Source of the DNA: Planktothricoides raciborskii GIHE-MW2
GTDB taxonomy: Bacteria; Cyanobacteriota; Cyanobacteriia; Cyanobacteriales; Laspinemataceae
Assembly (NCBI RefSeq): GCF_040564635.1
Contig: NZ_CP159837.1
Span: 4,637,001 to 4,701,000, forward strand
DNA length: 64,000 nucleotides
Reading direction: 5' to 3'
The position numbers were made by a program, and so were the translations under genes. Positions 9,726-55,750 of the stretch are shown piece by piece. The first letter of the stretch is position 1. Each line of letters opens with the position of its first letter. The notes below the pieces were generated by a model. It had not been told where the DNA came from and did not search any database. It saw only the letters and a list, made by a program, of their open reading frames with translations.

Positions 9726-10718
9726 GTGAACTTTCTTGAGACAGAACGATCTAAAATTCTAGTGGTAGACGATCATCCAGCCAGCCGGATGACCGCAATG
9801 GCTTTATTGTCTGTGGAAGGCTATGAAATTCTAGAAGCAGACAGTGGCCCTGCCGCCTTGGCACAGGTCAAAGAAACCAATCCAGATTTAATTTTACTGG
9901 ATGTAATGATGCCGGGAATGGACGGATTTGAGGTCTGTCGCCACTTAAAACAAAGCGAAGGAACTCGGTTAATTCCGATTGTATTTGTCACCGCCCTCAA
10001 TGACCGGCGATCGCGCATCCGAGGGATCGAAGCGGGAGGAGACGATTTTCTCACCAAACCCTTTGACCATTTAGAACTTTCTGCCAGAGTCAAATCCCTA
10101 ATTCGACAGAAACGGCTAAACGAAGACCTCGACCATGCGGAGAAAGTCCTATTTTCCATTGCCAAAACCGTAGAAAGCCGCGATCCGAATACCGGCGACC
10201 ATTGCGAAAGGCTGGTAGAACGAGGGCAAGAATTTGGGGAATATCTGGGTTTGCCCCGCAACCAAATTCGGGATTTAATGTGGGGCGGTTATCTCCACGA
10301 TATTGGCAAAGTGGGGATTCCTGATTCAGTGCTGCTGAAAACAGGTCGCCTCACAGAGGAAGAATGGGTGATTATGCGACAGCACGTGATTATTGGGGAA
10401 AAAATTTGTAAACCTCTGCGAACAATGCGAGGGGTGATTCCCATTATTCGCCACCACCATGAACGCTGGGATGGAAGTGGTTATCCCGATGGTTTAATCG
10501 GTGATGAAATTCCCTATTTAGCTCAAGTCTTTCAAATTATTGATATTTACGATGCCTTAACCAGTGAACGACCGTATAAAAAAGCGTTCTCTCCCCAAAC
10601 CGCTTTGGAAATTATGCAGGAGGAAACCGATAAAGGTTGGCGAAATCCTAAACTGATGCAACAGTTCAGAGATTTTATGTTCCAAGTGAGTGCAGAAATT
10701 CACTCCTTAGCGAGTTAA
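9726..10718 (+). CDS. Response regulator with HD-GYP c-di-GMP phosphodiesterase domain
   Basis: An N-terminal receiver domain (about residues 10-128) has the acidic pair D15/D16, phospho-acceptor D59 in LILLDVMMPGMDG and K111. It is followed by an HD-GYP domain with the HDIGK metal site (191-195), the HHHERWDGSGYP motif (243-254, GYP at 252-254) and the conserved tail DIYDALTSERPYKKA. Phosphorylation by an unknown histidine kinase would control hydrolysis of cyclic di-GMP. The start is GTG 9726; the preceding spacer contains AAAGGTG, a weak ribosome site. No kinase gene is adjacent. A long TTGTTTG inverted repeat follows the gene. Confidence 0.92.
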   Translation: MNFLETERSKILVVDDHPASRMTAMALLSVEGYEILEADSGPAALAQVKETNPDLILLDVMMPGMDGFEVCRHLKQSEGTRLIPIVFVTALNDRRSRIRGIEAGGDDFLTKPFDHLELSARVKSLIRQKRLNEDLDHAEKVLFSIAKTVESRDPNTGDHCERLVERGQEFGEYLGLPRNQIRDLMWGGYLHDIGKVGIPDSVLLKTGRLTEEEWVIMRQHVIIGEKICKPLRTMRGVIPIIRHHHERWDGSGYPDGLIGDEIPYLAQVFQIIDIYDALTSERPYKKAFSPQTALEIMQEETDKGWRNPKLMQQFRDFMFQVSAEIHSLAS

Positions 10719-10721
10719 ATA

Positions 10722-10825
10722 GTTGTTTGTTGTTTGTTGTTTGTTGTTTCTCCTCTTCAAATAATAACCAATAACTAATAAACAATAAATAATAACAAAC
10801 AACAAACAACAAATAACGAATAACA
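10722..10825. repeat. Long inverted repeat of GTTTGTT heptamers
   Basis: A TTGTTTG tandem run (about 10722-10750) is mirrored by AACAAACAACAAACAAC (about 10793-10812), so the transcript could fold into a long hairpin after the HD-GYP gene. The same heptamer family occurs near 12.3, 30.6, 41.75 and 56.4 kb. Confidence 0.75.
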
Positions 10826-10882
10826 ATCAATGGTAAAATCTCCTGATGTAGAGATCCCCAAAAAAATAAAAGAAAAAAAAGC

Positions 10883-12307
10883 ATGGTAGCAGTAGCAATT
10901 TTAGCGGCTGGACGAGGGACACGCATGAAGTCTGATCTGCCCAAAGTTTTACATCAGTTGGGAGGGCGATCGCTCATAGAAAGAGTGTTAGAAGTAGGGG
11001 CGCAATGCTTGCGCCCGCAAGCATTATCCCCCAAGCCCTCGGACATTGAGCCATCCCATTGTTTTGTCATAGTGGGATATAAAGGAGAATTGGTTCAAGC
11101 GGTTTGTGAAGCGAGATTTTCCCGGCAGCAGCAGTCGGGACAACTACCTCCCTTAACATTTGTGCAACAAACCGAGCAACTCGGGACAGGTCATGCCATC
11201 CAGCAACTACTTCCCCACTTGCAAGGATTTGAGGGAGATTTACTGGTTTTGAATGGGGACGTGCCGTTGTTGCAACCAGAAACCATTAAAATGCTGCTGG
11301 AAACTCACACTACCCATAAAAATGCGGCCACGCTGTTGACCGCACAGTTGCCAGACCCCAAAGGATATGGCCGGGTATTTTGCGATCGCGATAATTTCCT
11401 GCAACAAATCGTTGAAGACCGAGACTGCACCCCGGAACAAAAGCAAAATCGCCGGATTAATGCGGGGGTTTATTGCTTTAATTGGCCTGCTTTGGCCAAG
11501 GTTTTGCCAGATTTAAAGGCGAACAATGACCAGCAAGAATATTATTTAACCGATGCGGTGAATTTTCTGGCTCCAGTGATGGCGGTAGATGTGGCCGATT
11601 ATCAGGAAATTTTGGGGATTAATGACCGCAAACAGTTGGCGAACGCTTACAGCATTTTACAAGAACGCCTCAAAGATCGTTGGATGCGAGCCGGTGTCAC
11701 CCTGGTCGATCCGAACAGTATCACCATTGATGATACGGTGCAATTCGATCGCGATGTAATTATTGAACCTCAAACCCACCTCCGGGGTCATACGGTGATT
11801 CGTTCTGGGGCGAGGATCGGGCCTGGGAGTCTCATTGAAAATAGTGAAATTGGTGAAAATGTCCGGGTTTTGTATTCGGTCATCACCGATAGCCAAGTAG
11901 CTGCGGACAGCATTGTTGGACCTTATGCCCATTTGCGGGGTAAGGCGAAAATTGGTCAAGGTTGCCGGGTCGGTAATTTTGTGGAGATTAAAAAGAGTAC
12001 CGTGGGCGATCGCACCAATGTAGCCCATCTTTCTTACCTGGGAGATGCCACCTTGGGCGAACGAGTGAATATCGGTGCGGGAACCATTACTGCCAACTAT
12101 GACGGGGTGAATAAACATCAAACCATTATCGGTGACGGCAGTAAAACCGGGGCAAATAGCGTGCTGGTGGCCCCTGTCACCCTGGGAGAAAATGTCACCG
12201 TAGCCGCAGGATCGACCATTACCAAAGATGTGGAGGATAACGCTTTGGCGATCGCTCGCTCCCGTCAAGCATCGATCGCGAATTGGCAACCCTTAAAAAA
12301 AGATTAG
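10883..12307 (+). CDS. glmU: Bifunctional GlcNAc-1-phosphate uridyltransferase / glucosamine-1-phosphate acetyltransferase
   Basis: GlmU makes UDP-GlcNAc for peptidoglycan and surface polysaccharides in the cytoplasm. The N-terminal nucleotidyltransferase has the [18 protein letters not shown] signature (8-25), [10 protein letters not shown] and NGDVPLL. The C-terminal left-handed beta-helix has the acetyltransferase features [18 protein letters not shown] and [13 protein letters not shown]. The total of 474 residues is slightly long for the family. The excess is at residues 39-57, where [19 protein letters not shown] replaces a short loop and is encoded by a genomic palindromic repeat (see 10995-11030). 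The frame stays open and all catalytic motifs are present, so the enzyme is probably active. Confidence 0.95.
10995..11030. repeat. GGGGCGCAATGCTTGCGCCC palindrome inserted in glmU
   Basis: The sequence GGGGCGCAATGCTTGCGCCC and the following GCAAGCATTATCCCC match the intergenic elements at 44995-45020 and 45040-45062. Here it lies in frame in glmU codons 38-51. Confidence 0.85.
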
Positions 12308-46885: not shown

Positions 46886-47250
46886 GGTGGGAAAGATTTG
46901 CGACTGAGGGATAAGCACGAAGCTTACAGAACCCTGGATTAAATCTTTATGCCTAGTTTAACTTAGGGTAAAGATAAATGACATTTTTGTCAGGATTTGT
47001 GTTTCTGACAGATGAGTCATCTCAGTGATTGGTGACGAATCATCGAAGAATTTGTGGCAATTGTGTTCGATACAGCGCTAACTTAGAGGGCTAACTTAGA
47101 GATGATTCGAGCATCTTGCCACTAGGGAGATAGAAATAATCTTTGGGTTTTGGAAGTTCAGGTTTTGAGTATTTTATACGACTTCTTGATTAAATACCCG
47201 GAATCTAAGCCTAGAAGAAGCTGTATATTTGGCAACAAAACACCAATTAG

Positions 47251-47288
47251 GATCTGGGGATATGGGCGATCACCCATATCCCCAGATC
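47251..47288. repeat. 16-bp perfect inverted repeat
   Basis: GATCTGGGGATATGGG and CCCATATCCCCAGATC flank the 6-base centre CGATCA. No T-run follows. Function unknown. Confidence 0.85.
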
Positions 47289-47655
47289 GCCCCAGATTAG
47301 TAATTCCGCCAGAAATGCTATTTTAGCAAAGTTTCCGTTCTGCCTAGGCCGACGTCCTAGGATCCATACCGATTGATATCTGTTATGCGGATATCCTCGG
47401 TTGGTCACAGTGCAATCCAATCAGATCCCCAAGTGTCTGATGACACTTGCCTTAGCAATAGCGATTAATTTTTTATCCCAGTTAATTAATAGACAAGAAT
47501 GCTTTCCCAAGCTAAAAAGCCGAGTGGCGCCCTTTTCCGCCATCGGGTGGAGGGATCGAAACAGGCATGAAAGCCAGAATTGTCTAATATTTATTGTGAG
47601 TTAATGGCATCTTTTATTAGGAAATTTTTATGATTAAATTAAGTTGTTTATTGAC

Positions 47656-47743
47656 AGGACTTACGCATAAACGCTATCCGTAGGGTGTTGTTCCGAGCGG
47701 TAACGCACCAATAAGCCATATATAGATTACTTGCGTAAGTCCT
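47656..47743. mobile_element. 88-bp MITE with AGGACTTACGCA terminal repeats
   Basis: AGGACTTACGCA (47656-47667) and TGCGTAAGTCCT (47732-47743) are perfect 12-bp terminal inverted repeats. The inside has TAGGGTGTTGTTCCGAGCGGTAACGCACC. This terminal sequence is a widespread cyanobacterial IS/MITE end. There is no coding capacity, so movement would need a transposase in trans. Confidence 0.82.
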
Positions 47744-48090
47744 AATTGATAAAATAGATTGTTTAACTTTTTCAGGTTTTTATAAAAATTAATAAATTAA
47801 ACTTAAATTTTACAGATAATTACGATTAAAAATAATTTATTTAAATTAATTAAAACTTAAAAAGCAATTAAAAAGTAATTTATTTAACCCAAATATTTAG
47901 CTTATAGTTTAAATGGTTTGTTTAAATAAATTACCTAATATATTATAGTCGGCTGTCCGAGAGAAGATATTTCTGCTTACTGTAAAAAAATAGGGCAGCA
48001 TTAGAGAGAGGGATTTGTCAAAAAATCCGCCATTAAAAAATCCGCCATCAAATAAGCTGGAAATATATCATTTGAGAGCATCAGGGCTGA

Positions 48091-49774
48091 ATGCCGGAAT
48101 TGTTATGGGAGAATCCCTGGACTGAGCAGCGATTTGCATCCGCAAAGCCGATGCGCGATCGCGCAGGTGAAATTACATTTCAAGGTGGCCATCTCACCAC
48201 CAGAGGCGGTCGAATAGAATTAGGCAGTGTTAGGGGCAGTGTTGATGGAAATAACACCGTTATATTAGTCCCGGTTAATAATGGTTGGACAGCCGCTTAT
48301 AGCCAAGTAAAAAGCTTCCAAAATATTCAATTATCCCAAGAATATTATATCAATTTGGGGGGCAAATAGACGGCGATATTCACCTCCAGGGACAGTCAAT
48401 TATATTAGATGGTGGCTCGGTCGTCGCGGCCAATCCATTGGGAGATTTGCCAAGAGGCGGCATCACGATTAAAGCAGTTGATTCGGTAATTGTCAGCGGG
48501 ATTAGTGATGCGTTTAACTTTCCCAGTTATATCCTCAAGGAAGTCGAAGTAGGGGCAACATCTAATGGCGGTTTTATTCATATTTACACCGGCAGATTAA
48601 TCATCCAAAATGGGGGGTATTTTCCGTGGGTCTATTTGGCAGTGGCGATGGGGGAGACTTAACGATTAATGCCACATAATCCGTATAACTCAGAACACTC
48701 ATATCCGGATAAATTATCACTCTATTACTCAATGAAGCGAATGAAGAAGGAACCGGCAGCGGCGGAAGTTTAAGAATTAATACCAAACGGTTAATTATGG
48801 AAAATGGAGAGAACATTTCCGTAGGAACATATAACCCAGTGGGTCGAGGGGGAGAGATTATTATTAATGCTTCAGAATCTATAGAAATGTCTGGCAGGAG
48901 AGGCGACCCGATTGGTAGTGAAATTTCCATTGCCGCTTATAATGATATTCGCAATTTAGCCGGAACAATTTTGATCAATACTGATCGCTTAATATTGCGA
49001 TAAAAGGTCGAAATTTGCGGCAAAAATCAAGGGTTGGGCGGCGGGGGTAATGTCAAGATTTTTCTAGACACCGAGGCCAGAATTGCCGCCAATACGGAAT
49101 TCGACCCTGGGGTAAATCTGACTTTAAATATCAGAAATGGATTAGTGATGCGCGGGGAAAGTAGCATTACTACCGAAGCGGGGAATAATGGCGATGGGGG
49201 AAATATTGCCATCAATGGTGCTACGGTGGTAGCCTTAAAAAATAGTGATATCGTTGCCAATGCTTTTGAAGGTAGTGGCGGCAAAATAAATATTAATACT
49301 CAAGAAATTTTTGGCACTAAATTTAGATAATAATTAACCTCAGATAGTGATATTACCGCTTGTTTTCAGTTTGGCTTATCGGGAACTGTGGTAATTAATA
49401 ATCCAGCGGTTAATCCCACTACAGGATTAGTCGAACTTCCCGAACGAGTCAATGACCCCACCGGACAAATTCAAGTCGGATGTGCTGCTACCCAAGGCAA
49501 TTCTTTTACGGTTACTGGACGGGGTGGTTTACCGGAAAATCCTACCCATGAACTTGAAGAGCAAACAATTTGGAAAGATTTACAAGATTTTTCTCAATTG
49601 CCTCAGACTCCAGGAAATATTTCTTATGTAATGGGTGAGGTTTTTCTGGCAACCAAGACACCAATCCAGATCGAGGCAACAAATTGGCGGATCAATGGCG
49701 ATGGCAATGTCGAATTAGTGGCTATTTCATCAAGGGCGATCGACTCCAGAGTGGCTGCGGTTTGTCACAAATAA
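48091..49774 (+). pseudogene. Filamentous haemagglutinin-like secreted protein, decayed
   Basis: Fragments in changing frames together match the beta-helical passenger of cyanobacterial haemagglutinin-like (two-partner secretion) proteins. In order: GEITFQGGHLTTRGGRIELGS and SFQNIQLSQ, then DGDIHLQGQSIILDGGSVV, later GRGGEIIINASESIEMSG, then NIAINGATVVALKNSDIVANA, and finally FTVTGRGGLPENPTHELEEQTIW with the usual end EATNWRINGDGNVELVA. At least five stops or frameshifts interrupt it. The N-terminal secretion domain is missing. It is a clear remnant. Confidence 0.85.
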
Positions 49775-50012
49775 TCCAAGAAACCGAGTTTCTCGGTTAA
49801 CTGTTTCAGGGACAAGAAACCGGGTTTCTAGGTTAATTTTTGCCCCCCAGCCAAAAGATAAATTAGTAAACCCGGTTTCTAACCTCTCCAAGCCTCTCCA
49901 AACAACCAACCCTAGGGACAAGAAACCGGGTTTCTATGTACGGGCGATTCGCGAATCGCCCGTACTTGGTTGGTAGCAAAGGTTGTCCCAAGAAACCCGG
50001 TTTCTAACTTTT
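49775..50012. repeat. Cluster of GAAACCCGGTTTC elements and one TACGGGCGATTCGCGAATCGCCCGTA palindrome
   Basis: AAGAAACCGGGTTTCT or its inverse occurs at about 49781, 49815, 49868, 49920 and 49990. The 24-bp perfect palindrome at about 49939-49964 belongs to the TACGGGCGA...TCGCCCGTA family seen at 55434 and 41810. Confidence 0.88.
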
Positions 50013-50069
50013 CCACGGGTAAGGGAAATAACTCGGTACAATCTCGGTACAATAAATAACGTTGAATTA
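49990..50069. repeat. 80-bp direct repeat, left copy flanking the restriction-modification island
   Basis: It starts AAGAAACCCGGTTTCTAACT and ends AACGTTGAATTA. It is nearly identical to 52231-52310, which lies just before polA; I count about five mismatches. Confidence 0.93.
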
Positions 50070-50075
50070 CCAACC

Positions 50076-50236
50076 GATATTAGAAAGTAGCGACTATCCC
50101 ACAGCTTTACAAAATGCTAAACTAGATTGCCTTATTTTCCGCTGCCAAGGGATTTAGCTTGCTTTAGAGCTATATGCCACATTTTTATTAGCCCCGGAAT
50201 TGCACCAACATATGCAAAAAATTTCCCAAATTTGAT
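50076..50236 (+). pseudogene. Fragments of a duplicated polA (3'-5' exonuclease domain)
   Basis: Bases 50077-50155 match polA 53753-53831 (ATATTAGAAAGTAGCGACTA and so on) with a few changes, and 50172-50235 match polA 54030-54093 (TATGCCACATTTTTATTAG). Material between these parts, and the first 1.4 kb of polA, is absent. With the upstream 80-bp repeat this shows an old copy of the polA 5' region reduced by deletions. Confidence 0.9.
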
Positions 50237-50307
50237 CGGGATGCGGTAAAATGGTAAGATTAAATTAGTTATGTAATTTTTAAAAATATTGAGTATTTTT
50301 AACTAAA

Positions 50308-51276
50308 ATGAATGATCTGATTGTCCATACAATTAACATTGCTCATTATCGACTAATCGAGCTTACCAAACTTGCCGACCAAGCCAAACCATTTTATGAT
50401 TGGGTTGAAAAACAGGCAAAACGCATTACAGGGTCTCATCGGTCTTTAAATGAAATCCTATTGACTTGTTCAAAAATGGAGATAGCAAAAATTATCAAAG
50501 CTTGCTATGAAAATGTCAATGATGAAAAGCCTTTGTTATTTGATGGAATTGGTCGGGTTTATCCACATGGTAAGGCGTGTTTTTACTTTTTTGCATGGAT
50601 GATCAGAGATGCCCCTCAACAAAGACTCTCTCCTTTGATTTCCCGAATGCAAAAAGCCGATAATGTTACCAAAATAATGGCCGAAACGGATGCTTTGGTC
50701 GAACTAATATTCGAGTACCGCACTCTGGTAAAAAGTTTTGATTGGTCAGCCGTAAGAGAAGTTGTTATTGATCGCTTAGAAGGTTCTCGACGCAGTATCA
50801 GTGGGCATCGCATTGAGGCTAATGTAAGAACAAGTCTAATCACTGCGATTCAGTATTATTATTCTATTTATGGCAACTATGGAAAATTCAAGAAAATTGA
50901 CATTGCGGATAAGCAGATCAAGCTGGGAAAACATACGATTGATATTTCGGTTGAGTTAACACCAAAAATTGGCAGTGGTAAGGTAGGTTTATTGATTCCA
51001 GTCAAAACAAGAGAAACAGAGGGAGGGGGTCATTCCCATCTCTTCACTCGCGACATAATTACTGCAATTAGCGATATTAAGAAGGAAATCAATAACTACC
51101 ATATAGTTGCGATCATCGTTGCTGAGAATTGGTCAGCATCAGAAATAGCTACCCTGGATAATCAGATTGACCTGATATTTCATTTTAACATGAATCCTAA
51201 CAAATTTATTGGATTTGATGAAGCATCTCAAGTAAAATTTAATAAATATATCGAGAAGATTCTCGGAGGAGCGTAA
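50308..51276 (+). CDS. Putative type II restriction endonuclease (uncharacterised)
   Basis: A 322-residue soluble protein; I recognise no named enzyme. It is 7 bp upstream of a DNA methyltransferase gene, the standard arrangement for a type II pair. The C-terminal half looks like a PD-(D/E)XK nuclease: an acidic helix with SGHRIEANVRTSL (E170), TIDISVEL (D212 on a beta strand), then VGLLIPVKTRETEGGGHSH with K233. The usual E-x-K is P-V-K here, so the acidic residue may be supplied from E170 or E236, as in Cfr10I-type enzymes. This assignment is inference from context and pattern. Start ATG 50308 is in a low-GC region, unlike its neighbours. Confidence 0.7.
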   Translation: MNDLIVHTINIAHYRLIELTKLADQAKPFYDWVEKQAKRITGSHRSLNEILLTCSKMEIAKIIKACYENVNDEKPLLFDGIGRVYPHGKACFYFFAWMIRDAPQQRLSPLISRMQKADNVTKIMAETDALVELIFEYRTLVKSFDWSAVREVVIDRLEGSRRSISGHRIEANVRTSLITAIQYYYSIYGNYGKFKKIDIADKQIKLGKHTIDISVELTPKIGSGKVGLLIPVKTRETEGGGHSHLFTRDIITAISDIKKEINNYHIVAIIVAENWSASEIATLDNQIDLIFHFNMNPNKFIGFDEASQVKFNKYIEKILGGA

Positions 51277-51283
51277 AAGTAAC

Positions 51284-52159
51284 ATGGAAAATCGGGTAAT
51301 TCTCGGTGATGCTAGAAAAATTGTCCCCACCTTTGAAGATAATTTTTTCCAGGCGATTATCACCAGCCCGCCATATTTCGGCCAGCGGCGATATTCTGAG
51401 GGGGAAAATAAAGATGAAATCGGTCAAGAAAGTGATGTGGAAATTTATATCTCCAACTTAGTTAGCCTATTTAGAGAACTCAGAAATAAACTGAAATCCG
51501 ATGGTTTGTTGTGGGTGAATTTGGGAGACACTTATAGAAACAAATCATTGCTAGGTATTCCTTGGCGAGTCGCATTATCTTTACAAGCGGATGGTTGGAT
51601 TCTCCGCAGTGATATTATTTGGCATAAGCCTAATGCTATGCCTTCATCGATTAAAGACCGTCCGACAACCGATCACGAGTATATTTTTATGTTCGCGAAA
51701 AGTCCCGAATATTATTATAATGCTGATGCGATTAGAGAACCACATATAACTTTTACAGAAAAGTCAAGAATGAAAGGGGGAAGAAACCATTTTGGCAAAA
51801 TCAATGGCACCCCCGAACTAGGGAAAAATTCAGGCAATCAAAACTTACATAATGGCAGGTGGGATCAAGCGTTTCACCCAAAGGGACGAAATAAGAGAAC
51901 TGTGTGGGAAATTCCCCTGAGTAAATTCCGCGATGTTCATTTTGCTGTCTATCCTGAAAAACTTGTGGAAATATGCCTGCTGGCATCGACTAGGGAGCAA
52001 GATTTTGTGCTCGATCCATTTACTGGTTCTGGTACTACGGGAGTTGTGGCGGGTAAATTATTTAGAAAATTTATCGGGATTGAATTAGTGGAAAAGTATC
52101 AAATTATGGCTCAAGATAGAATTGATCGGTTGAATATGCAACTGAATCTATTTTCATAA
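51284..52159 (+). CDS. Type II DNA methyltransferase, beta class (probably N4-cytosine)
   Basis: A 291-residue site-specific methyltransferase. The catalytic motif TSPPYFGQRRY (residues 27-37) comes before the SAM motif DPFTGSGTTGVVAG (about 246-259), which is the beta-class order. The Ser-Pro-Pro-Tyr form favours N4-cytosine over N6-adenine methylation, but does not prove it. IIWHKPNAMPSS and RPTTDHEYIFMFAKS are also typical. It protects DNA from the partner nuclease. GGAGG (51267-51271) overlaps the end of the nuclease gene and is a possible ribosome site. The recognition sequence is unknown. Confidence 0.9.
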   Translation: MENRVILGDARKIVPTFEDNFFQAIITSPPYFGQRRYSEGENKDEIGQESDVEIYISNLVSLFRELRNKLKSDGLLWVNLGDTYRNKSLLGIPWRVALSLQADGWILRSDIIWHKPNAMPSSIKDRPTTDHEYIFMFAKSPEYYYNADAIREPHITFTEKSRMKGGRNHFGKINGTPELGKNSGNQNLHNGRWDQAFHPKGRNKRTVWEIPLSKFRDVHFAVYPEKLVEICLLASTREQDFVLDPFTGSGTTGVVAGKLFRKFIGIELVEKYQIMAQDRIDRLNMQLNLFS

Positions 52160-52230
52160 CCGGGCTTAATCTGTGGTGATTGGCAAGCGATCGCGAAGCA
52201 GGGATAAGAAACCGGGTTTATGGGTAAATT

Positions 52231-52310
52231 AAGAAACCCGGTTTCTAACTTTTCCACAGATAAGGAAAATAATTCGGTACAATCTCGGTACAATAAATAA
52301 CGTTGAATTA
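52231..52310. repeat. 80-bp direct repeat, right copy, upstream of polA
   Basis: Matches 49990-50069. It contains AAGAAACCCGGTTTC and the TCGGTACAATCTCGGTACAA doublet, and ends 18 bases before the polA start. TACAAT in it may be the polA -10 element, which would explain why the intact gene is on this side. Confidence 0.93.
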
Positions 52311-52328
52311 TTACGATGGTGGGTATAA

Positions 52329-55300
52329 GTGTCAGCAAATCTTTCTCAGTTACTTTTAATTGATGGTCATTCTTTGGCATTTCGGGCTTATTATGCCTTT
52401 GGCAAAAGCAAACAGGGTGGACTGCGTACCTCAGACGGTATCCCCACTAGCGTCTGTTTTGGCTTCCTGAAATCTTTATTGGAAGCGATCGACAAAGAAC
52501 AGCCAGACTCCGTGGCGATCGCCTTTGATTTGGCTGAACCCACTTTTCGCCACCAAGCGGATCCTACCTATAAGGGCGATCGCGCCGAAACTCCCGTTGA
52601 CTTTATCCCGGATTTGGCGAATTTACAACAACTATTACGGGCGTTTAATTTGCCAGTAATTACCGCCCCTGGGTATGAAGCGGATGATGCGATCGCCACT
52701 TTAAGTAAAAAAGCCGCAGCGGAGGGAACTCGCGTCAAAATTGTCAGTGGCGACCAAGACTTATTCCAACTAATTGACCCAGAAAAAGGCATTACCGTCA
52801 TCCATTTAAGCGCCAGTAGAAATACCAGCCCGAAAGAATTTGGCCCTGCGGAAGTTGAAGAAAAATTAGGGATTTTACCCACGCAAGTGGTAGACTACAA
52901 AGCCCTCTGTGGGGACAAATCCGATAATATTCCCGGAGTCAATGGCATCGGGGAAAAAACCGCCGTTAAATTACTCCAAGAATATCAAAATCTGGATAAT
53001 ATTTACGCCTCGATTGATAAAATTAAAGGCAGCCTGCAAAAAAAACTGAGCGAGAATAGAGAAGCAGCCTATCATTCTCGGTTTCTGGCGCAAATTGTGG
53101 ATAATGTACCCTTAGAAGTGTCCTTAGCGGATTTTAAATTACAAGGATTTGACCCTGCGATCGCCCTGCCCTTACTGCAAAAATTAGAACTCCGTGATTT
53201 TGTCCGCCAAATCAACCAAATTCAAGAAAAATTAGGCGGAACCGTCGAGGTAGCATTGCCCAGCGAACCCTCATTATCTAATCAGTATCAGAATCAGTAT
53301 AATGATGATAATGATGTAAATAATAATCATCTAAATAATTATGAGCGATCGGGGGATATCCAACTTTCCTTATTTACTCAACCCAATATTCCCGCTAAAA
53401 ACATTCCTGCTAAAAACCCGACAGCTAAACCCATAGTTGACCCCACAACTATCAACATCACCCAGGAAACAGAAACAAAACCCCTGGATACTAAAACCAT
53501 ATCCATTTATCCAGAAATCATCGACACCCCAGAAAAGTTAAACCAATTAGTTGCCAGACTAAAAACTTATACTAACCCCGAAATTCCCGTAGCTTGGGAC
53601 ACAGAAACCACCGGATTAGAACCGCGAGACGCGCAACTCGTGGGCATTGGTTGTTGTTGGGGCAACCAACCCAATGACATGGCATATATTCCCATCGGTC
53701 ACACTACCGGAAAGCAGCTAGAATTGAGTGAAGTATTAGGGGCATTGCGAGAGATATTAGAAAGTAGCGACTATCCCAAAGCTTTACAAAATGCTAAATT
53801 TGATCGCCTCATTTTCCGCTGCCAAGGGATTAATCTAGCTGGGGTAGTTTTTGATACCATGTTAGCCAGTTATTTGCTTAATCCCGATGATAGCCATACC
53901 CTCACGGATTTATCCCTGCGTTACTTATCAGGAATTGAATCACTCAGTTACAAATCCTTAAACATTCCCAAAGGGCAAACCATTGCTAACTTAAGCATTG
54001 CTGAGGTAGCTAATTACTGTGGATTAGATGTCTATGCCACATTTTTATTAGTGCCAAAATTGCGCCAAAAACTCCAACAAATTCCCCAAATAGACAAACT
54101 GTTACAAACCGTCGAACAACCCTTAGAACCTGTCTTAGCGGACATGGAATATCAAGGAATTAGGGTTGATAGTGCTTATCTGGGGCAACTTTCCCAACAA
54201 ATTAATCAGCAGTTAGAGGAGATAGAACAAAAAGTTTATCAACTGGCAGGTCTGCCGTTTAATTTAAATTCTCCCAAACAAATGAGTGAGGTATTATTTG
54301 ATACCTTAAACTTAGATACCAAAAAATCTCGCAAAATGAAAACTGGCTATTCCACAGATGCAGCAACTTTGGAAAAACTCCAGGGCGACCATGAAATAAT
54401 TGATTATCTTTTGGATCATCGCACCTTAGCCAAATTAAAATCAACTTATGTGGATGCTTTACCCCAATTAGTCCGCCGGGATACTCAACGAGTGCATACG
54501 GATTTTAATCAAGCGGCAACGGCGACGGGACGGTTATCTTCTTCTAATCCTAACTTACAAAATATTCCCATTAGAACGGAATTTTCTCGGCAAATTCGCC
54601 AAGGATTTGTCCCCGAACCCGGTTGGCTATTAGTCTCGGCGGACTATTCCCAAATAGAATTAAGAATTCTTGCCCATTTAAGCCAAGAACCTGTTTTAAT
54701 TCAGGCTTATCAGACTTCTCAAGATGTCCATAATTTAACCGCCCAGTTACTTTTTGAAAAAGAAAATGTTACCCCCGAAGAACGACGCTTAGGTAAAACC
54801 ATTAACTTTGGGGTAATTTATGGTATGGGGGCGCAACGGTTTGCGCGGGAAGCGGGCTTTACGGTGGCGGAAGGGAAAAAGTTTATTGAACGATTTAACC
54901 ATCGCTATGCTCAAGTTTTTGCCTATTTGGAAACCCAGAAAAAAGAGGCGATCGCCCACGGTTATGTAGCGACGATTTTAGGGCGACGGCGTTATTTTAC
55001 CTTTGAGTCGCCCACCTTGCAAAAACTCAAAGGGTCTAACCCTGCTGCCATTGACTTAAACCTGGGTCGATTAACTCAGCAAGACTCGCAAAATCTTCGC
55101 GCTGCCGCCAACGCACCGATTCAAGGTTCTAGTGCTGATATCATCAAAATTGCGATGGTAAAAGTACATCAACTTTTACAAGAATATCAAGCCCGGTTAC
55201 TGTTACAAGTCCATGATGAATTAGTCTTTGAAATTCCTCCCCATGAGTGGGCAGAATTGCAGCCAAAAATTTGCCAAACAATGGAAACAGCAGTTAAGTT

Positions 55301-55358
55301 ATCCGTTCCCCTCTTAGTTGATATTCATTCTGGGCATAATTGGCTGGAAGCGAAATAA
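52329..55358 (+). CDS. polA: DNA polymerase I
   Basis: A 1009-residue, three-domain repair and replication polymerase. The 5'-3' exonuclease (1-310) has LLLIDGHSLAFRAYYAF and GYEADDAIATL. The 3'-5' proofreading domain (about 390-600) is intact: VAWDTETTGLEP, NAKFDRLIF and YCGLDVYATF. The polymerase domain has GRLSSSNPNLQNIPIRTE, SADYSQIELRILAHLS, GKTINFGVIYGMGAQRFA and LQVHDELVFE. Residues about 318-390 are a low-complexity linker rich in Asn, Asp and Pro (NQYNDDNDVNNNHLNNYE). The start is GTG 52329. The domains are complete, so this is the working copy; a broken copy of part of it lies at 50076-50236. Confidence 0.96.
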   Translation: MSANLSQLLLIDGHSLAFRAYYAFGKSKQGGLRTSDGIPTSVCFGFLKSLLEAIDKEQPDSVAIAFDLAEPTFRHQADPTYKGDRAETPVDFIPDLANLQQLLRAFNLPVITAPGYEADDAIATLSKKAAAEGTRVKIVSGDQDLFQLIDPEKGITVIHLSASRNTSPKEFGPAEVEEKLGILPTQVVDYKALCGDKSDNIPGVNGIGEKTAVKLLQEYQNLDNIYASIDKIKGSLQKKLSENREAAYHSRFLAQIVDNVPLEVSLADFKLQGFDPAIALPLLQKLELRDFVRQINQIQEKLGGTVEVALPSEPSLSNQYQNQYNDDNDVNNNHLNNYERSGDIQLSLFTQPNIPAKNIPAKNPTAKPIVDPTTINITQETETKPLDTKTISIYPEIIDTPEKLNQLVARLKTYTNPEIPVAWDTETTGLEPRDAQLVGIGCCWGNQPNDMAYIPIGHTTGKQLELSEVLGALREILESSDYPKALQNAKFDRLIFRCQGINLAGVVFDTMLASYLLNPDDSHTLTDLSLRYLSGIESLSYKSLNIPKGQTIANLSIAEVANYCGLDVYATFLLVPKLRQKLQQIPQIDKLLQTVEQPLEPVLADMEYQGIRVDSAYLGQLSQQINQQLEEIEQKVYQLAGLPFNLNSPKQMSEVLFDTLNLDTKKSRKMKTGYSTDAATLEKLQGDHEIIDYLLDHRTLAKLKSTYVDALPQLVRRDTQRVHTDFNQAATATGRLSSSNPNLQNIPIRTEFSRQIRQGFVPEPGWLLVSADYSQIELRILAHLSQEPVLIQAYQTSQDVHNLTAQLLFEKENVTPEERRLGKTINFGVIYGMGAQRFAREAGFTVAEGKKFIERFNHRYAQVFAYLETQKKEAIAHGYVATILGRRRYFTFESPTLQKLKGSNPAAIDLNLGRLTQQDSQNLRAAANAPIQGSSADIIKIAMVKVHQLLQEYQARLLLQVHDELVFEIPPHEWAELQPKICQTMETAVKLSVPLLVDIHSGHNWLEAK

Positions 55359-55429
55359 AATTTGTGGTTGGGTAGGGATTCTTTGGTTGTTTCTTGGGGA
55401 ACGGGGAACGGTTATCAGGGAACGGGGAC

Positions 55430-55750
55430 AGTCGTACGGGCGAATGGCCATTCGCCCGTACAAAAGTCGTAGGGGCGAATGGCCAAGAGAGAAAAGAGAG
55501 GAGAGAAAAGAGAGGAGAGAATATCTTTCCTATGCATCCTCTTTCCTATGCATCCTCTTTCCTATGCATCCTCTTTCCTCTTTCCTATGCATCCTCTTTC
55601 CTCTTTCCTATGCATCCTCTTTCCTATGCATCCTCCCTTTCACTATTCACTATTCACTCTCTCCTCTGCTCCTCTGCTCCTCTGCTCCTCTGCTTCCCTG
55701 TTCCCAGTTCCCAGTTCCCGGTTCCCTGTTGCCTGTTCCCTGTTGGTTGG
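55430..55750. repeat. Repeat block: palindrome, CCTATGCATCCTCTTT units, CTCTGCTC and TTCCCTG runs
   Basis: GTACGGGCGAATGGCCATTC palindrome (about 55434-55461), GAGAGAAAAGAG units (55486-55520), six TTTCCTATGCATCCTC units (55528-55636), CACTATT nonamers, CTCTGCTC octamers (55660-55692) and TTCCCAG/TTCCCTG heptamers (55696-55745). Open frames in all three phases are repeat translations. Confidence 0.9.

What the first reader, a model, noticed from the sequence alone, without database searches (positions are those of the whole stretch)
49990..52310. Restriction-modification island sits between two copies of the polA upstream region
The nuclease/methyltransferase pair (50308-52159) lies between 80-bp direct repeats at 49990-50069 and 52231-52310. 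The right copy is the leader of intact polA; the left copy is followed by shortened pieces of polA exonuclease-domain sequence (50076-50236). So a stretch running from the polA leader into the gene, at least about 1.8 kb, was once present twice, with the island between the copies, and the left copy then lost most of its length. This fits insertion with long target duplication, a route proposed for restriction-modification genes. Use of polA as the target would be notable, since the duplication would keep one copy intact.
Basis: partly seen in the sequence, partly recalled or inferred. Interest (0 to 1): 0.75.

Follow-up and report, generated by a model that had tools for sequence, protein, structure and literature searches.

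The report
Restriction genes inside a duplicated polA
In a filamentous cyanobacterium a pair of mobile DNA-cutting and DNA-marking genes sits between a decayed partial copy and the intact copy of the gene for DNA polymerase I, an old and unusually long example of the duplicated flanks that such genes are known to leave behind.

Summary
A Type II-like restriction-modification (R-M) pair (50308-52159) lies between a decayed left copy of the polA 5' region (49990-50231) and the intact leader and gene (52231-55358). The genus is Planktothricoides. In its other held species the same island is preceded by a different remnant of the same left copy: leader plus polA codons 1-116, then the same last polA piece, deletion joint and spacer. 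So the left copy once ran at least from the leader to about codon 588 (1.84-1.89 kb), predates the species split, and eroded independently. The R-M pair occurs in unrelated genomes at other places, with homology stopping at its gene ends. All 3 held genus genomes carry island and duplication; 10 of 11 other family genomes could be checked and show no polA remnant upstream of polA. No empty-site relative is held, so one-step insertion with duplication is likely, not proven. The first 16 to ~33 bp of the 80-bp repeat are a dispersed repeat. Some 5' similarity reflects later gene conversion. The left border is also a rearrangement breakpoint between the species.

The parts
49807..49989 (+). array of dispersed AAGAAACCGGGTTTCT-type repeats at the outer (left) edge of the left copy; near the rearrangement breakpoint between the two species
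   Evidence: at least 119 matches in the genome for 49760-49992
49990..50069 (+). left copy of the polA leader (first 16 to ~33 bp also part of a dispersed repeat)
   Evidence: 76 of 80 identical to 52231-52310; dispersed part
50076..50163 (+). left-copy polA remnant 1 (= 53753-53840, 3'-5' exonuclease domain)
   Evidence: 91% identity; 74 of 79 over its first 79 bp
50164..50231 (+). left-copy polA remnant 2 (= 54024-54091, polA codons 566-588), shared with the sister species through the same deletion joint
   Evidence: 54 of 68 identical; shared joint
50232..50307 (+). spacer between polA remnant and nuclease gene, 70 of 76 identical in the sister species; the last 22-23 bp are alike in 2 of 13 other R-M loci and the last 10 bp in a third; origin of the rest unknown
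50308..51276 (+). restriction endonuclease gene (322 aa)
   Evidence: PADLOC REase_II model PDLC03531, E 1.7e-87; no Pfam or NCBIfam match; weak Foldseek matches led by a restriction enzyme
51284..52159 (+). DNA methyltransferase gene (291 aa)
   Evidence: Pfam N6_N4_Mtase E 6.5e-52; PADLOC MTase_II
52160..52198 (+). short right-hand joint between methyltransferase stop and right copy; 35 of the first 37 bp identical in the sister species
52231..52310 (+). right (native) polA leader
52329..55358 (+). intact polA (DNA polymerase I, 1009 aa)
   Evidence: Pfam DNA_pol_A and NCBIfam TIGR00593

Best explanation
A horizontally mobile Type II-like R-M pair entered the polA locus of the common ancestor of the held Planktothricoides species and became the filler at the joint of a ~1.84-1.89 kb direct duplication running from just upstream of the polA leader to about codon 588. 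The right copy kept leader and gene intact. The left copy had no function and decayed by deletions, differently in each species; one deletion (polA 53841-54023) is shared and so older than the split. Gene conversion between the copies kept part of the 5' portions alike, at least in the sister species. Shown: the duplication and its minimum extent, the island between the copies, shared ancestry, independent erosion, a patchy cross-phylum distribution of the pair, a low dN/dS of both R-M genes. Inferred: gene conversion, and that duplication and insertion were one event (insertion with long target duplication, for example joining of the pair between staggered ends of sister chromosomes). I put the architecture and history at about 0.9 and the one-event step at about 0.6.
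For: Left copy in the sister species = leader + polA codons 1-116 (97% aa) + remnant 2 + same spacer + R-M pair. A deletion joint is shared by both left copies. Across 13 other R-M loci homology starts between 23 bp upstream and the first bases of the nuclease gene and ends at or before the methyltransferase stop, so 50232 to ~50285 and the polA pieces are not part of the mobile pair. Of 20 fetched stretches (19 distinct loci, some with short flanks) holding whole or partial R-M relatives, only the 2 from the genus carry polA. Nuclease 86% identical to that of G272 while polA is 60-65%, i.e. horizontal transfer. dN/dS between species: nuclease 0.117, methyltransferase 0.144, polA codons 1-300 0.115. 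Other genera: no polA remnant upstream of polA in the 10 of 11 genomes that could be checked. Between the methyltransferase stop and the right copy only ~39 bp lie, with no polA 3' part seen.
Against: No genome with an empty site is held; 3 of 3 genus genomes have both features. The duplicated length is over ten times the 'order of 100 bp' reported for this kind of insertion (PMC3874152, passage). Remnant 2 is more diverged (14 of 68) than the leader and remnant 1 (9 of 159); Fisher P 0.0013 in the window, and 8e-7 for 13 of 68 against 9 of 396 in the sister species, which needs gene conversion or a second history. In the 13 of 14 non-genus R-M loci with usable flanks (two of them with under 1 kb on one side) no long unique direct repeat lies next to the pair; the only long adjacent one is a multi-copy, transposase-like element, so this pair does not always leave such duplications.
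Confidence: 0.62

Rival explanations
1. Campbell-type integration: a small circular DNA carrying the R-M pair and a polA 5' fragment recombined once with the chromosomal polA, giving partial copy - R-M - full copy. No plasmid backbone is left.
For: Gives the same final structure. Relatives of the nuclease sit on plasmids (7 records): Lactococcus pJM4H (6.2 kb, 54%, with a methyltransferase gene next to it) and a Lactiplantibacillus plasmid (7.6 kb, 53%); the other 5 are about 31% identical.
Against: No replication or mobilisation gene between the repeats: only two + strand ORFs of 60 aa or more, and about 115 bp outside the two genes. No polA-bearing R-M plasmid was looked for.
Confidence: 0.18
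2. Duplication first: polA was tandemly duplicated, and the R-M pair later replaced the 3' part of the already useless left copy.
For: The redundant copy would be a harmless landing site; duplication and insertion need not be linked. The polA locus has been rearranged in this lineage.
Against: Needs an extra deletion taking all polA sequence from codon ~588 to the end together with the downstream duplicated part, ending within ~39 bp of the methyltransferase stop. No strain with duplication alone is held.
Confidence: 0.17
3. Remnant 2 (and so the left edge of the island) came with the R-M pair from a donor whose polA differed by ~20%, and the left copy is a host-donor hybrid (a special case of the first rival).
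For: Remnant 2 is much more diverged from the native gene than the rest of the left copy.
Against: In 291 genomes searched with 50141-50307 (2 candidates scored per genome) the left copies and the genus's own polA gave E <= 6e-10; all other matches were short (19-53 bp) with E 8e-6 or worse. At the 10 sites fixed between left and right pairs, 6 of 9 other family polA genes are more right-like by at least 2 sites and 3 are level or within one; none is more left-like. Both left copies have Glu for the Asp of the YCGLD motif (its catalytic role is recalled), as expected of decay.
Confidence: 0.06

Closest known systems
Insertion with long target duplication of R-M genes (Nobusato et al. 2000, Gene 259:99-108; not looked up, seen only as cited in passages of PMC3031569, PMC3874152, PMC1643837)
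   Same: R-M genes flanked by direct copies of a host sequence that is not duplicated in other genomes; no transposase in the insert; flanking rearrangements.
   Different: Target is ~1.84-1.89 kb and starts at the leader of polA; [quoted passage not shown] Old, eroded event; no empty site known.
R-M pair of the same family on the small plasmid pJM4H (Lactococcus cremoris), and between transposase-like repeats in G285
   Same: Same two genes in the same order.
   Different: Carried by a plasmid or between copies of a multi-copy element (IS630-like by recall, not scanned); no duplicated host gene seen.
IS-linked movement of an R-M system (PaeR7I; PMC3031569, abstract start and passages)
   Same: R-M genes move into the chromosome and can end up between direct repeats.
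   Different: There the repeats are IS copies with short target duplications; here the repeat is host polA sequence and no IS was found between the repeats.

Membership tests
Insertion with long target duplication (R-M) | insert bounded by direct copies of one host sequence | tested here: met
Insertion with long target duplication (R-M) | the duplicated sequence is not duplicated in relatives without the insert | tested here: met
   10 of 11 other family genomes checked, no polA piece within 6 kb (4.4 kb for one) upstream of polA; but these are other genera with another neighbourhood
Insertion with long target duplication (R-M) | empty site in a close relative that matches the flanks precisely | tested here: inconclusive
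   none available: 3 of 3 genus genomes carry the insert
Insertion with long target duplication (R-M) | duplication length in the order of 100 bp (length as given in PMC3874152) | tested here: not met
   at least 1,836 bp (52256-54091) spanned by the pieces of the two species together
Insertion with long target duplication (R-M) | insert carries R-M genes and no transposase | tested here: met
   only the two + strand genes were scanned
Type II restriction-modification system | adjacent endonuclease and methyltransferase genes of Type II families | tested here: met
Type II restriction-modification system | cleavage and protective methylation of one short site | not testable with these tools
   needs methylome or enzyme assay
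Composite (IS-flanked) transposon | IS copies at both ends of the R-M pair | tested here: not met
   between the repeats only two + strand ORFs of 60 aa or more, neither with a transposase match; the flanks bear polA sequence

The most novel reading that the evidence does not exclude
The left leader is not only a scar: it is a second working polA promoter that now drives the R-M genes, and gene conversion keeps the two leaders alike, so that the island is tied to the expression of the repair polymerase and can leave by recombination between the leaders without harming polA.
Probability: 0.15. Interest if true: 0.6.

Novelty: new member of a known kind. Interest (0 to 1): 0.42.

Why it matters
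It is a case, older than a species split, of an R-M insertion with a very long host duplication at a core replication and repair gene; the one open-access search that combined R-M, target duplication and cyanobacteria listed a single paper, on Thermus phages. Two species preserve complementary remnants, so the minimum extent of the original duplication can be read directly, and the signs of gene conversion between the copies suggest that such repeats stay recombinationally active long after insertion. It gives a concrete locus for testing whether R-M insertions create the duplications that flank them.

Tried and rejected
Chance repeat: rejected, E about 1e-27 and matching remnants in two species. 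Dispersed repeat as the whole cause: rejected for the polA-specific leader part and the polA pieces, true for the first 16 to ~33 bp of the repeat and for the array upstream. IS-mediated composite: rejected for the window; a repeat of that kind was seen beside the pair in G285. Inverted duplication from the rearrangement between the species: rejected, the copies are direct and adjacent to the island, although the left border is a breakpoint; the rearrangement itself was not resolved step by step. Remnant 2 as donor polA: see rivals. Promoter scan: 9 sigma-70-like sites against 8.2 expected, none on the + strand in either leader, so no support from it for a promoter. Solved-structure search by sequence gave only chance-level matches (E 0.34 or worse). 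The predicted nuclease fold (mean pLDDT 82.6) gave no Foldseek match at E <= 0.001 and low TM-scores; best BstEII, then a mix in which restriction and other nucleases are frequent. No phage record holds the nuclease at E 1e-5. Paper searches: R-M with target duplication and polA (8 papers, where the term also matches words such as Poland), Planktothricoides with restriction (13 papers, 10 listed), R-M with target duplication, insertion and cyanobacteria (1 paper), R-M with tandem duplication and pseudogene (1 paper); from the listings alone none appears to describe this locus. Passages only were read of PMC3031569, PMC3874152, PMC3154945, PMC2749054 and PMC1643837.

Full report
What is there. 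The window lies in a 7.2-Mb single-contig genome. The nearest named records holding the same nuclease are Planktothricoides sp. SR001 (99%) and the MAG Oscillatoriales cyanobacterium S07.Bin090 (97%). Between 49990 and 55358 the sequence reads: left polA leader, two polA pieces, spacer, endonuclease, methyltransferase, ~39 bp, right leader, intact polA.

Check of the repeats. The leader repeat is 76 of 80 identical. Its start belongs to a dispersed repeat: of 62 matches of the 2371-bp query in the genome, 3 are the locus and its polA pieces and most of the others end at 50005, the longest at 50014 or, for the right copy, at the equivalent of 50022; the stretch just upstream gave 119 matches. 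Only 40 candidates were scored in each of these searches, so the counts are lower bounds. The part 50015-50069 is 51 of 55 identical. The two polA pieces match 53753-53840 and 54024-54091. G001 agrees with the window over 47001-55483 at 99.8%.

The decisive comparison. In G002 the same pair (nuclease and methyltransferase both 97%) is followed by a full polA (994 aa) and preceded by the leader and polA codons 1-116 in a 120-aa open frame, then the same remnant 2 and spacer. Both left copies share a joint in which polA 53841-54023 is missing. So one left copy existed before the species split; the window lineage later lost the equivalent of 52311-53752, and the G002 lineage lost the part from about codon 116 to about 53832. 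Together the pieces show a left copy from the leader to 54091: at least 1,836 bp (from 52256), about 1,893 bp if the dispersed repeat at 52199 is counted.

Age and gene conversion. In remnant 2 (68 bp) the two left copies agree at 64 sites and the two right copies at 66, while left and right differ at 14 (window) and 13 (G002); 10 sites are fixed between left and right. If rates were even, the duplication is well older than the split. The 5' parts are less diverged: 9 of 159 in the window and 9 of 396 in G002 (Fisher P 0.0013 and 8e-7). In G002 over 397 columns, left and right share 10 bases against the window's right copy, while 1 site joins G002-left with the window against G002-right, and 7 sites are private to G002-left; 10 against 1 has two-sided binomial P 0.012. 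I read this as gene conversion in G002. A short string at the G002 left border also appears at its right border (by eye).

The island itself. The nuclease matches PADLOC REase_II (E 1.7e-87) and has no Pfam or NCBIfam match; the methyltransferase is N6_N4_Mtase. The predicted nuclease fold has only weak Foldseek matches, led by BstEII and including R.BspD6I, BbvCI, BsoBI and MspJI but also Cdn1, Card1 and unrelated proteins, none at E <= 0.001. dN/dS between species is 0.117 and 0.144, near that of polA codons 1-300 (0.115), consistent with selection on both genes. The nuclease was found in 18 of 291 order genomes (3 of them the genus; several matches partial), in MAGs labelled Chloroflexi, Anaerolineae, Gammaproteobacteria, Cytophagales and Bacteroidetes and in Alicyclobacillus (some partial); and on 7 plasmid records, 2 of them above 50% identity. 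With 86% identity to G272 against 60-65% for polA, transfer is clear. In 13 other loci homology starts between 23 bp upstream and the first bases of the nuclease gene and ends at or before the methyltransferase stop. Of 20 fetched stretches (19 distinct loci) with whole or partial R-M relatives, only the two genus loci carry polA. Of 14 non-genus loci given to the flank comparison, 13 had usable flanks (L072 and L068 under 1 kb on one side). None has a long unique direct repeat beside the pair. G285 has a 445-bp transposase-like repeat on both sides, present in 9 near full-length copies in that genome; L067 has a 27-bp repeat close by; L067, L071, L089 and L092 have repeats of 43-226 bp more than 1.5 kb out, not examined.

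Relatives. The family search covered 14 genomes, 3 of the genus and 11 others. Of the 11, 10 had a polA 5' end that could be examined and none had a polA piece upstream; in G007 polA is cut off at a contig end. G003 has in addition a polA-like match of 36% elsewhere. Only G005 of the 11 has the nuclease, on another contig than polA. In 9 of these 10 polA loci a pentapeptide-like gene lies upstream (by eye, name recalled); the best match to that gene in the window's genome lies about 370 kb from polA, so polA has changed neighbourhood and no strict empty site is available.

Rearrangement at the left border. In G002 the left copy is preceded by a cytosine-5 methyltransferase (by motif, recalled) whose ortholog in the window's genome lies 2.15 Mb away (6838254) and ends differently; the stretch that precedes the left copy in the window (porin side, about 40.9-47.0 kb) lies on the same G002 contig in reverse orientation at about 66.6-72.9 kb. 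So the outer edge of the left copy, made of dispersed repeats, is a breakpoint. R-M genes have been linked to rearrangements before (PMC3031569 and PMC3874152, passages).

Mechanism. The arrangement left copy - pair - right copy is what insertion with long target duplication predicts, and is equally the product of a single crossover with a circle carrying a polA fragment. Only about 115 bp besides the two genes lie between the copies, and the relatives of the pair examined elsewhere have no polA beside them, which favours the first. Duplication before insertion would need a further deletion ending close to the methyltransferase stop. Without an empty-site strain I give one-event insertion about 0.6.

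Promoter idea. Several polA leaders in the family show a TACAAT or TAAAAT hexamer at a similar distance from the start codon (by eye), and the left leader keeps it. The consensus scan does not support a promoter there. This stays a conjecture.

Verdict. It is a long, old and eroded member of a known kind of R-M insertion, with the one-step origin likely but unproven.

Noticed in passing
L021 3117-4307 (G002) and L134 ~10255-11450 (G000:C1:6838254): Cytosine-5 methyltransferase-like gene (label by eye) joined in G002 to the polA left copy with a replaced C-terminus; in G000 its ortholog is followed by another gene, possibly a partner nuclease, whose frame shows an early stop (read by eye).
   Followed up: partly
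window 48091-49774: Several short frames in one direction with glycine-rich repeats, apparently a decayed large surface-protein gene (haemagglutinin-like by eye); no Pfam match for the two ORFs scanned.
   Followed up: no
window 49760-49992: Dispersed repeat family (AAGAAACCGGGTTTCT and a GTACGGGCGATTCGCGAATCGCCCGTAC palindrome), at least 119 matches in the genome, at a rearrangement breakpoint.
   Followed up: partly
window 55521-55740: Short tandem repeats (TATGCATCCTCTTTCC and CTCCTCTG types) soon after polA; in G002 a 965-aa sensor-kinase-like gene (label by eye) lies after polA instead.
   Followed up: no
L067, about -197 and +137 from the R-M pair: 27-bp identical, palindromic-looking repeat on both sides of the R-M pair in Oscillatoriales USR001, possibly a dispersed element or a short target duplication.
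   Followed up: no
L094 8531-10013 and L091: Nuclease genes broken into pieces beside uninterrupted methyltransferase matches in G201 and G192.
   Followed up: no
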